53,615 nucleotides of DNA, from assembly GCA_002869925.2 (NCBI GenBank), contig NEWT02000029.1:21153-74767 (forward strand), in the 5' to 3' direction. Both the position numbers and the translations under genes were made by a program. This DNA is from Nitrospira sp. CG24A. GTDB lineage: Bacteria; Nitrospirota; Nitrospiria; Nitrospirales; Nitrospiraceae. This document shows positions 37,305-41,328 of this stretch, piece after piece. Below the pieces are notes generated by a model. The model made no database searches. It had not been told where the DNA came from and was given only the letters and a program-made list of their open reading frames with translations. Each line of letters begins with the position of its first letter. The first letter of the stretch is position 1.

Positions 37305-37381
37305 GCGCCCGTAGCTCAATTGGATAGAGCATCGGACTTCGGATCCGAGGGTTGGGGGTTCAAGTCCCTCCGGGCGCACCA
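37305..37381 (+). tRNA. tRNA-Arg (anticodon TCG)
   Basis: A full cloverleaf folds: acceptor GCGCCCG with CGGGCGC, D arm GCTC/GAGC, anticodon stem TCGGA/TCCGA with loop CTTCGGA and anticodon TCG at 37339-37341, T arm with TTCAAGT loop, and encoded CCA (37379-37381). It should read CGA and, with wobble, other CGN codons. A decayed copy of its 3' half lies at 41278-41328, so this gene is the probable attachment site of an integrated element. Confidence 0.97.
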
Positions 37382-37685: not shown

Positions 37686-38150
37686 AGGGTAGTTTGCATA
37701 TCTCGCGAACTGCTGGAATCGTCGTCCAAGAGAGCAGGGACCAATGGGACGTTCGCCCTCATGTCTGGCTCACATCCCACGTTTTCAGGATCCAGATATT
37801 TGGCAGGAGATGATTCGCGGGTTAATCGATTGCTGAACGTGTAGAAGTCGTGACTTGATCCGACCTTTCCTGTATCCGCTCGGTCAGACTACGAACTTGT
37901 TGATCCTTTCTCTTGAATCAGATTTGATTCACCTCATGAATTTCTTTTGATACACCCGTCTACGATCAGGAGTTGTGTCTCAGCCGTGCGCAAGGCATAC
38001 CACACTGATAGTAAAGAGATTAAGGTCATCGCGATACCCCCGACTTATGCTGGCATCTGGCTTGCTTTCTTTCGATGCCATCGATTGCAATCGCAGAGTT
38101 CTAAGACTAAGTTGACGGTAGGCGTAAAAGCGCACTGGTACGACAGAACG
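37686..38150. other. 465-bp region without a supported gene
   Basis: It separates the small acidic protein gene from the lipoprotein gene. The lipoprotein frame is open from 37947, but the part before 38151 lacks a signal peptide or ribosome site. I see no repeats or RNA structure worth naming. Confidence 0.4.
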
Positions 38151-38723
38151 ATGGCTCGTGAATCACGAGCGCAAGTGCAATTTTGCATTCTCGTCCTTGC
38201 GCTTGCATTGGTAGTAGCCACGTATGGTTGTGGACGAGATGAGCCGAAACCTGGAGGGCAAGCTATGCCAAGCAAAGAGAGCAATCAACCGGCCACGACA
38301 CGCGCTGCGCGCCTCATCTTTGAGTATGAGGGTGAGCGGGTGCGTTTGGTCAGCCAGCAGGTAGTAGAGATGGTTGTCACCGGTTTCGATATCGCTCGGG
38401 CGCATCATGCCGGCGTCTACGTAGATGCCCGTGACGCTGAAGATAGAACCTTGTCGCGGGTGCCGGCACGCGACGCCTTCGCCACCAGCACGGAGGTGTT
38501 CCCAGAACGGGCAGGTGAAGCGATTGTGCGTGTCGATACGGCGAGGCCGAAGGGCGCTTTCACGGTGGTTATTCCCGTGCCACAAGAAACCAATAAAGTG
38601 GCAGTAGTGCGTGTGGTGCCGGCACAACTGGATGCGAAGTTGCCGGCCGGTGGTACCACTAGCCGTGTAGCTGGCGCCGCCGAAGCCACCGATCTTGCGA
38701 CCTTCCCGCTCACACTCAACTAG
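38151..38723 (+). CDS. Lipoprotein of unknown function
   Basis: This 190-residue protein has a lipoprotein signal: charged start, hydrophobic core (FCILVLALALVVATYG) and lipobox ATYGC with Cys at residue 27. The mature part has beta-rich stretches (ARLIFEYEGERVRLVSQQVVE, GVYVDARDAEDRTLSRV) that look like an immunoglobulin-type or similar beta-sandwich. I do not recognise a family. It precedes the M64 peptidase gene by 19 bp and is presumably expressed with it, perhaps as a surface partner. Confidence 0.65.
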   Translation: MARESRAQVQFCILVLALALVVATYGCGRDEPKPGGQAMPSKESNQPATTRAARLIFEYEGERVRLVSQQVVEMVVTGFDIARAHHAGVYVDARDAEDRTLSRVPARDAFATSTEVFPERAGEAIVRVDTARPKGAFTVVIPVPQETNKVAVVRVVPAQLDAKLPAGGTTSRVAGAAEATDLATFPLTLN

Positions 38724-38742
38724 TGAGAATAGGAGCCGAACT

Positions 38743-40650
38743 ATGTCAACTGCAGATGGTGCCGTCATCGGTACGACCCAGATCGCTGGCTCAGCTCCGC
38801 GCAACCGCGCGTTCAACGTTGTCCTTCTCGCCGAGGGCTTTACTGCAGCCCAACAGAATGATTTTAACAATGCCTGCATGACCTTCGTTAACACTTTCCG
38901 AACTACGCCTCCATTCGACGAGTTGAGTGCTGCGATCAATGTATTTCGCGTGAACGTCCGCTCGACCGATACAGGGGCCGACGATCCAGTCGCAGCAGGC
39001 GGAACCGGAGCGACGGTGCGCACGTACTTCGACGCCTCGTTCGGCGGCAACAACATTCGCCGCTTGCTCATTTGCAATACGACGACGGCATTGCAGGTAG
39101 CGGCGGCGCAGGTACCCGAGTTCATAGTCGTTCTGCTAGTTGTCAACTCGACCATCTACGGCGGCAGTGGCGGATCGGTCGGCACGTATTCGCTCGCCGG
39201 CGGCGCGACCGAGATTGCAATTCACGAAATGGGCCATACGGCATTTGGGCTTGCCGACGAATATCCATACTATGCCGGTGGTAACGAAACCGGCCACGAT
39301 CACCACCCTGCTGGCGAGCCCGGCGAGCCGAACGTCACCACCAACTCGAATCGCAACACGCTCAAATGGCGTTGGGCAGTGGCCAGCACGACGGCAATCC
39401 CGACGATGGCTAATCCCAACTGCTCACAGGTAGATGGTCGGCCGAATCCCGTGCCAACTGGTACGGTTGGTCTGTTCGAGGGAGCGCACTATTATCACTG
39501 TGGCGCGTATCGGCCGGAATATGACTGTAAGATGCGGGCGCTCAGTGTGCCGTTCTGTCGCATCTGCCGACAGGTGATCTGGAACCGTATCGGGCCATTG
39601 GCAACGCTTTCGGCCCGCGCACGCACGCCAATCTCTGTCATCGCTCGCTTCCCCGAGCATCTGGATGTGTTCGCAGTGGCCAGCGACGGCCGCACGGTAA
39701 GCAATTGGTGGGATCAGTCAAGCGGTTGGGCCGGATGGTTCAACTTGATGGGTGGCATCGCCTCTCCAGGTGGTCCCGGCTCGCCCGTTACCGCAGTCCA
39801 CCGTTACGCAGGACACATCGACCTGTTCACCGTTGGCACAGATAACAGGGTGTGGAGCGCGTGGTGGGACGCGGCGACCGGCTGGCATTCCTGGTTTCAA
39901 ATCGGCGACCTGGTGTGTCGCCAGGGATCGGTCATTAATGTCGTCTCTCGCTACAGCGACCACATTGATTTGTTCACGACGGCCTCGGACGGACGAGTCA
40001 TGTCCACGTGGTGGGATGTGCGCAGCGGCTGGGCCCCGTGGTTCCACGTTCAAGGCGGCGTTGCTGCTTCCGGCGCTCCAGTCACCGTCGTTGCGCGGTA
40101 TCCGTTCCATCTCGATCTATTTACAGTGGGGACCGATAACCGCGTGTGGAGTTGTTGGTGGGACGAACGTAGCGGCTGGCATGGCTGGTTCCAGATTGGC
40201 AACCTGCAATGTCGTCCAGATTCGACAGTCACGGTGGTCAGCCGTTTCCCCGATCAACTCGATCTTTTCACCACCGCTGCCGATGGCCGTATCATGTCTA
40301 TCTGGTGGAACTCGCGCAAGGGATGGGCCAACTGGTTCCACGTCTCTGGCGGCGTGGCCTCGCCAGGCTCTCCTGTCACTGCCATCGCTCGTTATTCGGG
40401 CCACCTCGACTTATTCGTCATCGGCACCGACAATCGAATCTATAGCACCTGGTGGCACGAGAACCAGAGCTGGGCCGGCTGGTTCAACGTCTCAGGCGGT
40501 GTTGGCATGCCTGGCGGACAAGTGGCAGCGATCTCTCGCGCAACGGAACATCTTGACTTGTTCACCGTCGGTTCGGATGGTCTTGTCTATAGCACTTGGT
40601 GGGATGGCGCCACAGGTTGGGCTGGTTGGTTCGCACTGGGCGTGACCTAA
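38743..40650 (+). CDS. M64-type metallopeptidase fused to a seven-repeat PLL-like lectin propeller
   Basis: This 635-residue protein has residues 1-290 of the M64 peptidase type (IgA peptidase): AFNVVLLAEGFTA, then the zinc motif HEMGHTAFGLADEY at 161-174 (H161, E162, H165). Residues 297-635 contain seven units of about 50 residues, each with an LDLFTVGTDNRVWSxWWD core and GW.GWF. This resembles the PLL/DUF346 beta-propeller lectins, predicting carbohydrate binding. No signal peptide is seen at ATG 38743, so export is unclear; the start could be upstream at 38695, which also lacks one. Confidence 0.8.
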   Translation: MSTADGAVIGTTQIAGSAPRNRAFNVVLLAEGFTAAQQNDFNNACMTFVNTFRTTPPFDELSAAINVFRVNVRSTDTGADDPVAAGGTGATVRTYFDASFGGNNIRRLLICNTTTALQVAAAQVPEFIVVLLVVNSTIYGGSGGSVGTYSLAGGATEIAIHEMGHTAFGLADEYPYYAGGNETGHDHHPAGEPGEPNVTTNSNRNTLKWRWAVASTTAIPTMANPNCSQVDGRPNPVPTGTVGLFEGAHYYHCGAYRPEYDCKMRALSVPFCRICRQVIWNRIGPLATLSARARTPISVIARFPEHLDVFAVASDGRTVSNWWDQSSGWAGWFNLMGGIASPGGPGSPVTAVHRYAGHIDLFTVGTDNRVWSAWWDAATGWHSWFQIGDLVCRQGSVINVVSRYSDHIDLFTTASDGRVMSTWWDVRSGWAPWFHVQGGVAASGAPVTVVARYPFHLDLFTVGTDNRVWSCWWDERSGWHGWFQIGNLQCRPDSTVTVVSRFPDQLDLFTTAADGRIMSIWWNSRKGWANWFHVSGGVASPGSPVTAIARYSGHLDLFVIGTDNRIYSTWWHENQSWAGWFNVSGGVGMPGGQVAAISRATEHLDLFTVGSDGLVYSTWWDGATGWAGWFALGVT

Positions 40651-41112
40651 ATGAATCTGTAGCGATATACTTCAGGAAAAAGAAGGAAAAATCGTACGAC
40701 CCTGCGCATTGAGGGTTGGGTGGAGTAGAGTGTTCTTGTCCTTCTGATGCATTCATGGTGTTTCTCGCCGCAATCAGAAGGGCTTCTCCTGTATAGAGTT
40801 GTGGCTGCCAGGGTCGTGCGGACAATCGGAGGCAGATGCGAGCAAGTACCGTAAACGTGCCTGTCAAACGGAGCGCCCAACACCTACGCTCGTCGGATTG
40901 GCCTCCGTCCTATTAATGAAAAGTCGTATCGTGTCCGCAACTCCATCTTCCCAATCCCGCAGCTTAAACTTGAGGCTGCAGCCTTGGAGTGTTGCTGTGG
41001 TGCGTCGTTCCCTTCGCCACCCGCTGCCTCATCTTAATAATTCTCCCCAATCGCTCCAGTAGGTTCTGCATGGAGACATGGGGTCGTTATGAGGTGGCCC
41101 CGTTTCCGCCCA

Positions 41113-41277: not shown

Positions 41278-41328
41278 ATCGGATTTCGGATTCGAGGGTT
41301 AGGAACTCAAGTCCCTCCGGGTGCACCA
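41278..41328 (+). pseudogene. Decayed 3' fragment of tRNA-Arg (possible attR)
   Basis: Fifty-one bp beginning ATCGGATTTCGGATTC, with CTCAAGTCCCTCCGGG later, match 37331-37381 in 44 positions, including the CCA-like end. The acceptor 5' side, the D arm and half of the anticodon arm are missing, so it cannot encode a tRNA. Confidence 0.8.

What the first reader, a model, noticed from the sequence alone, without database searches (positions are those of the whole stretch)
38743..40650. Metallopeptidase joined to a seven-blade lectin-like propeller, without a visible signal peptide
An M64 HExxH peptidase followed by seven PLL/DUF346-like units suggests a sugar-targeted protease. Even-numbered repeats 2 and 4 share FQIG endings and others share FHV/FNVSGG, so the propeller may have grown by duplication of repeat pairs. 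A preceding lipoprotein may be its partner. How it leaves the cell is not evident.
Basis: partly seen in the sequence, partly recalled or inferred. Interest (0 to 1): 0.7.

Follow-up and report, generated by a model that had tools for sequence, protein, structure and literature searches.

The report
Two-part lectin-tagged metalloprotease, N-domain detached
A Nitrospira genome carries an acquired pair of genes for a zinc protease fused to a seven-blade sugar-binding ring; the small gene beside it appears to be the protease's own missing front domain made as a separate protein, an arrangement shared by very different bacteria and apparently undescribed.

Summary
Gene 38743-40650 (635 aa) is an M64 metallopeptidase (Pfam 1.5e-39) fused to a closed seven-blade PLL-type lectin propeller (predicted model; PLL lectins Z 37-39). 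Catalytic and structural zinc ligands are invariant in 25 relatives. No signal peptide is visible in any relative.

The preceding gene is a partner, but probably not a lipoprotein. Its likely start is ATG 38265. Its predicted structure best matches the N-terminal domains of all three solved two-domain M64 peptidases (Z 9.0 against 6.4 for the next unrelated hit). It sits directly upstream in 30 of 32 relatives and is fused in one. This is a split M64 peptidase, gate/folding domain in trans, spread across Nitrospirota, Actinomycetota, Pseudomonadota, Acidobacteriota and others, with swapped C-terminal binding modules.

In the window it lies in a 3.9-kb stretch bounded by tRNA-Arg and a copy of its 3' end, and is absent from 31 of 32 genus genomes.

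Best mechanism (inferred): the N-domain helps fold and restrains the protease; the lectin directs it to glycosylated targets outside the cell. Export is unsolved. One Arthrobacter has two cassettes flanking a complete extracellular contractile injection system, and carriers are enriched for such systems: a lead, not proof.

The parts
38265..38723 (+). Partner gene, 152 aa: detached M64 N-terminal beta-sandwich domain (predicted soluble)
   Evidence: AF2 model pLDDT 85.8; VIA-align Z 9.0/9.0/8.9 to N-domains of 9qdi, 3p1v, 4df9, next unrelated hit 6.4; conserved upstream in 30 of 32 relatives, fused in L027
38253..38257 (+). GGAGG Shine-Dalgarno of the partner gene, 7 nt before ATG 38265
   Evidence: sequence; same in L003, AGGAGG in L013/L042/L043
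38151..38264 (+). Lipoprotein-like in-frame extension, probably untranslated
   Evidence: substitutions 6/12/8 by codon position against L003; not conserved in L042/L043, in-frame stop in L043
38731..38735 (+). AGGAG Shine-Dalgarno of the peptidase gene, 7 nt before ATG 38743
   Evidence: sequence
38743..40650 (+). M64 metallopeptidase - PLL-type lectin propeller fusion, 635 aa, no signal peptide
38743..39600 (+). M64 catalytic domain (residues 1-286)
   Evidence: Pfam Peptidase_M64 1.5e-39; Foldseek 9qdi 4.8e-14
39223..39258 (+). Catalytic zinc motif H161-E162-x-x-H165-x-x-x-G169-x-x-D172; E173 follows (structural zinc ligand in IgAse)
   Evidence: H161, E162, H165, D172 and E173 invariant in 25/25; roles from PMC12237041
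39526..39567 (+). Met-turn C262-K-M264 and C272/C275: structural zinc site
   Evidence: C262, C272, C275 invariant in 25/25; matches IgAse C606, C616, C619
39619..40644 (+). Seven-blade PLL-type lectin propeller (residues 293-634)
   Evidence: VIA-align Z 37-39 to PLL, PLL2-5 and PHL; NCBIfam NF052348 above cut-off
37305..37381 (+). tRNA-Arg (TCG), left edge of the insertion hot spot
   Evidence: ARAGORN; also in G008, G009, G017
41278..41328 (+). 51-nt copy (86%) of the 3' end of tRNA-Arg, right-edge (attachment-site-like) repeat

Best explanation
This is a horizontally acquired two-gene cassette for a split M64 metallopeptidase. Gene 1 (38265-38723) makes the M64 N-terminal beta-sandwich as a separate soluble protein. 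Gene 2 (38743-40650) makes the catalytic domain fused to a seven-blade PLL-type lectin. The two are translated one after the other and assemble into what other M64 enzymes make as one chain. The N-domain acts in trans as folding partner and as gate over the active site, restraining a protease that is made without a signal peptide. Once outside the cell (by cell lysis or a non-classical route), the lectin holds the enzyme on glycosylated or O-methylated surfaces, where it cuts proteins. Shown here: domain make-up, zinc ligands, conserved gene pair, N-domain fold of the partner, lack of a signal, horizontal spread, island setting. Inferred: physical assembly, gating, sugar target, site of action. 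Unknown: how it leaves the cell.
For: The partner model matches the N-domains of all three solved two-domain M64 peptidases better than anything else (Z 9.0/9.0/8.9, next 6.4). Profile alignment with Bacteroidota M64 N-domains is colinear over 95 columns (E 0.024). The partner gene lies immediately upstream in 30 of 32 loci, and L027 carries both in one chain. Partner and catalytic-domain distances correlate (Spearman 0.83 over 25 loci). In BF3526 the N-domain flanks the active site, its E97 contacts substrate, the catalytic domain alone failed to express, and chymotrypsin fragments cut IgA unspecifically, so its authors call the N-domain a barrier (PMC12402451). C-terminal modules are swapped (PLL propeller, hemopexin, tectonin), as in enzymes aimed at outside targets. 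PLL lectins also lack signal peptides, yet PLL2 and PLL3 were found extracellularly (PMC12203525).
Against: No complex could be modelled or measured. IgAse, another M64, is active without its (unrelated) N-domain (PMC12237041). The partner has no Pfam hit, and the profile match is weak by probability. L026 has no recognisable partner. Export is unexplained. The catalytic model is poor at 175-199 and 220-257.
Confidence: 0.55

Rival explanations
1. It is an effector of an extracellular contractile injection system (eCIS): carried by or released with the particle, which would explain the missing signal peptide.
For: In Arthrobacter sp. H20 a complete eCIS locus lies between two copies of the cassette module on one 74-kb scaffold. 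eCIS cap marker Pvc16_N: 4/4 Nitrospiraceae carriers against 39/143 other genomes (p 0.0066), 3/8 Micrococcaceae carriers against 11/189 (p 0.013). The window's own genome has eCIS genes on another contig.
Against: Physical linkage in one genome only. 13 of 26 carriers tested have no Pvc16_N, including some with large assemblies. The Fisher tests ignore phylogeny. No eCIS_core domain was found in the peptidase. Its N-terminus lacks the aromatic residues in the first eight positions reported for many eCIS cargos (PMC11297309). A lectin is not needed on an injected cargo.
Confidence: 0.15
2. It is a cytosolic protease of an internal conflict or cell-death system, the partner being its inhibitor.
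For: No signal peptide in any relative. The fused form L027 is followed by trypsin-nuclease and EAD1-trypsin genes; L043 is followed by an S8 peptidase and a caspase-SIR2-CHAT protein. S8 subtilases lie beside the cassette in two Nitrospira and in the Arthrobacter L006/L009/L010 group.
Against: These neighbours are not conserved across the family. No PADLOC hit for either protein. Lectin, hemopexin and tectonin modules point outward.
Confidence: 0.13
3. The partner is a lipoprotein that anchors the peptidase at the outer membrane.
For: In-frame hydrophobic stretch with Cys at 38151-38264 and in RBC069; a lipoprotein-like start in Acidobacteria L014.
Against: No coding signature in that stretch, no canonical lipobox, absent in L042/L043 (in-frame stop in L043) and in every other relative except L014. 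The peptidase itself has no signal.
Confidence: 0.05
4. The upstream gene is an unrelated beta-sandwich protein that merely travels with a self-sufficient lectin-protease.
For: Beta-sandwiches are common; Foldseek E-values for the partner are weak (best M64 E 0.4).
Against: Top structural hits are exactly the M64 N-domains, at matching boundaries; the pair is linked across many phyla and fused in L027.
Confidence: 0.08

Closest known systems
Two-domain secreted M64 peptidases of Bacteroidota (BF3526, PDB 9qdi/4df9; BACOVA_00663, PDB 3p1v)
   Same: Catalytic fold, HExxHxxxGxxD, structural zinc ligands, N-terminal beta-sandwich before the catalytic domain
   Different: Here the N-domain is a separate gene, neither protein has a signal peptide, and a lectin propeller is added at the C-terminus
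IgAse / ThomasA of Thomasclavelia ramosa (M64 type enzyme)
   Same: Zinc motif, Met-turn, Glu/Cys3 structural zinc site
   Different: IgAse is secreted and sortase-anchored with a different N-domain and C-terminal zinc/beta modules; IgA is not a plausible target for Nitrospira
PLL family lectins of Photorhabdus (PLL, PLL2-5, PHL) and CV39L/BP39L
   Same: Seven-blade propeller with Trp-rich blades; no signal peptide
   Different: Those are stand-alone lectins; here the propeller is fused to a peptidase and falls below the CV39L and BP39L equivalog cut-offs

Membership tests
Peptidase family M64 | HExxHxxxGxxD catalytic zinc motif | tested here: met
   H161, E162, H165, D172 invariant in 25/25
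Peptidase family M64 | Met-turn and Glu + 3 Cys structural zinc site | tested here: met
   E173, C262 (C-K-M), C272, C275 invariant, as IgAse E551, C606, C616, C619
Peptidase family M64 | Profile and fold match | tested here: met
   Pfam 136 bits against 26; Foldseek to 9qdi/4df9 about 5e-14
Peptidase family M64 | Proteolytic activity | not testable with these tools
   needs an assay
PLL-type seven-blade beta-propeller lectins | Closed seven-blade fold of the PLL kind | tested here: met
   Z 37-39, 317-322 residues aligned, rmsd 2.3-2.5
PLL-type seven-blade beta-propeller lectins | NCBIfam beta_propeller_lectin domain cut-off | tested here: met
   203.3 against 200 bits
CV39L or BP39L lectin equivalogs | NCBIfam equivalog cut-offs | tested here: not met
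   240.5 against 350; 121.9 against 400
PLL-type seven-blade beta-propeller lectins | Sugar binding | not testable with these tools
   Trp motif kept in all blades, ligand unknown
M64 N-terminal domain (partner protein) | Fold | tested here: met
   Z 9.0/9.0/8.9 to residues 23-148 / 27-148 of 9qdi, 3p1v, 4df9, against 6.4 for the next
M64 N-terminal domain (partner protein) | Sequence profile match | tested here: inconclusive
   No Pfam hit; colinear hhalign, 95 columns, E 0.024 but low probability
Lipoprotein (partner protein) | Translated signal peptide with conserved lipobox | tested here: not met
   No canonical lipobox in the window or RBC069; non-coding substitution pattern; absent in L042/L043. 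L014 may differ
eCIS cargo | Linkage to an eCIS locus | tested here: inconclusive
   Flanks the locus in Arthrobacter H20; not linked in the other loci read
eCIS cargo | eCIS_core (DUF4157) domain, common among predicted eCIS toxins | tested here: not met
   Pfam scan of the peptidase shows none; not all eCIS toxins carry it

The most novel reading that the evidence does not exclude
A protease family in which the restraining N-domain was cut off into a separate gate/chaperone subunit, giving signal-less, lectin-addressed proteases that travel between phyla with swappable C-terminal binding modules and in some hosts leave the cell with an extracellular contractile injection system.
Probability: 0.13. 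Interest if true: 0.78.

Novelty: new variant of a known kind. Interest (0 to 1): 0.52.

Why it matters
It gives a function and origin to a gene family without any Pfam hit. It shows that the M64 N-domain, called a barrier in BF3526 in 2025, exists in nature as a separate subunit, so gating in trans can be tested by simple co-expression. It also sharpens an open question shared with PLL lectins: how lectin proteins without a signal peptide reach the outside.

Tried and rejected
Lipoprotein reading of the partner: rejected on codon-position pattern, ribosome-binding sites and the L042/L043 upstream sequence. Partner by sequence in the PDB and in Pfam: nothing useful. Known anti-phage system: no PADLOC hit for either protein. 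Phage origin: one remote viral contig and two remote faecal phage records match the peptidase part only. One conserved neighbourhood beyond the pair: none; only local groups share neighbours. Strict odd/even blade pattern: not significant. A structure of the two proteins together could not be run.

Full report
CHECK. Gene 38743-40650 encodes 635 aa. Pfam finds Peptidase_M64 (1.5e-39). NCBIfam finds a beta-propeller lectin domain above its cut-off. The best PDB matches are Bacteroidota M64 peptidases for the first half and Photorhabdus PLL lectins for the second. The AlphaFold2 model (pLDDT 81.5, 26 sequences) has 4-stranded blades from residue ~293 on; the structural aligner gives Z 37-39 to PLL, PLL2-5 and PHL over 317-322 residues, and Foldseek matches the catalytic part to 9qdi and 4df9. 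H161, E162, H165, D172 (HExxHxxxGxxD), and E173, C262 (C-K-M Met-turn), C272, C275 are invariant in 25 relatives; these are the catalytic and structural zinc ligands described for IgAse (PMC12237041). Against the 91%-identical copy in another Nitrospira, changes by codon position are 41/22/210.

THE PARTNER. The gene before it is conserved next to M64 genes of this clade: it lies directly upstream in 30 of 32 loci examined (L010's copy is truncated), is fused to the catalytic domain in L027 and is not recognisable in L026. Its model (residues from ATG 38265; pLDDT 85.8; nine strands) matches the N-terminal domains of 9qdi, 3p1v and 4df9 at Z 9.0, 9.0 and 8.9 over 112-114 residues, with chain residues 23-148 / 27-148, which is the published N-domain (21-145 in BF3526); the next unrelated hit is 6.4. 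Foldseek alone ranks 4df9 seventh with a weak E-value, so the claim rests on the second aligner, gene order, the fusion and a colinear but weak profile alignment. E77 is invariant and lies in the stretch between strands where BF3526 has the substrate-contacting E97; the residue match is not proven, and hhalign did not place it there.

START OF THE PARTNER. Read from ATG 38151 it looks like a lipoprotein. Substitutions against L003 in 38151-38264 are 6/12/8 by codon position, while 38265-38723 has 13/14/57. GGAGG precedes ATG 38265 by 7 nt. In the Nitrospira copies L042 and L043 the upstream frame has no hydrophobic stretch, and in L043 a stop lies 5 codons before the equivalent start. Most homologues also begin within about 15-25 residues of the RLIFEYEG motif. 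The partner is thus probably soluble.

SPREAD AND SETTING. Full-length copies of 68-91% identity occur in Nitrospira, Micrococcaceae, Cellulomonas, Dermatophilaceae and Variovorax; more distant ones in Streptomyces, Acidobacteria, Planctomycetes, Burkholderiales, Eremiobacterota and an archaeon. In the tree the two-gene clade is separated from secreted single-chain M64s (98/90; the Sodalis row is a very long branch and unsure), and Nitrospira, Actinobacteria, Variovorax and an Acidobacterium mix in one 16-row clade (95/90). Only 1 of 32 genus genomes, the window's own, has the gene. In the window it lies between aroK and pal, in a stretch bounded by tRNA-Arg (37305-37381) and a 51-nt copy of its 3' end (41278-41328). 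Close relatives have 1.1-1.4 kb between aroK and pal instead of 4.7 kb; G017 has a different 5-kb content at the same tRNA. L003, the nearest copy, shares only 37914-40661, so the cassette sits elsewhere there. C-terminal modules vary: PLL propeller, hemopexin (L016), tectonin (L015), an unnamed WWLWWPGYPG module (L018-L020), IPT-like repeats (L026, by inspection).

MECHANISM. For BF3526 the N-domain flanks the active site and contacts substrate, the catalytic domain did not express alone, and chymotrypsin fragments became unspecific, so its authors call the N-domain a barrier (PMC12402451). A separate N-domain encoded just upstream is best read as a folding partner and gate in trans. The lectin and its replacements argue for targets outside the cell. 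PLL lectins lack signal peptides too, yet two were found extracellularly (PMC12203525). Gating, assembly and site of action are inferred.

eCIS LEAD. In Arthrobacter sp. H20 a complete eCIS locus (Pvc16_N, sheath, gp19 tubes, CIS_tube, baseplate, CIS_TMP, eCIS_core, AAA) lies between two copies of a module BTAD - unknown - S8 peptidase - partner - M64-PLL - Sua5. Carriers are enriched for Pvc16_N within Nitrospiraceae (4/4 against 39/143, p 0.0066) and Micrococcaceae (3/8 against 11/189, p 0.013); these tests ignore phylogeny and rest on few carriers. Many carriers lack the marker, linkage was seen once, and cargo features are not evident. The window's genome has eCIS genes on another contig.

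VERDICT. Each module is known; the split N-domain as a conserved separate gene, in signal-less lectin-addressed M64s, is a new variant of a known kind. In the papers read it is not described; that is not an exhaustive literature search.

Noticed in passing
window 37305-37381 and 41278-41328; L035: tRNA-Arg(TCG) site with a 3'-end repeat looks like an integration hot spot: a different 5-kb content sits there in genome G017. No integrase was seen inside the window's 3.9-kb stretch.
   Followed up: partly
G319:C18 (L006, L057, L058, L010): Arthrobacter sp. H20: a complete eCIS locus between two copies of a BTAD / S8 / M64-lectin / Sua5 module; the second M64 copy lacks part of blade 4 and has a truncated partner.
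   Followed up: yes
L043 9479-14914; L042 9645-12700 (reverse complement): Downstream of the cassette in two complete Nitrospira genomes: S8 subtilase and alpha/beta hydrolase; in L043 also a SIR2-caspase-CHAT protein.
   Followed up: partly
L027 1390-7151: Partner domain fused to M64, followed by trypsin-nuclease and EAD1-trypsin genes that resemble bacterial conflict systems.
   Followed up: partly
L018, L019, L020: Operon of WWLWWPGYPG-module protein, an ~85-aa unknown, partner, and M64 with the same module at its C-terminus; L018 also has two large unknown genes (626 and 631 aa, no Pfam hit) upstream.
   Followed up: no
window protein residues C227 and C253: Invariant Cys pair in 25 of 25 members of the two-gene clade, apparently absent in Bacteroidota M64s; lies in the poorly predicted loop 220-257. 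Possible disulfide or extra metal site.
   Followed up: no
L051 (Sodalis glossinidius pSG1): Single-chain M64 without an evident signal peptide and with a fused N-terminal region, on a conjugative plasmid; possible intermediate form, on a very long tree branch.
   Followed up: no
G000:C2:128-6448 (L056): eCIS genes (Pvc16_N cap, gp19 tube, sheath, a WHD-domain protein of the ATPase type) in the window's own genome, near the contig end.
   Followed up: partly
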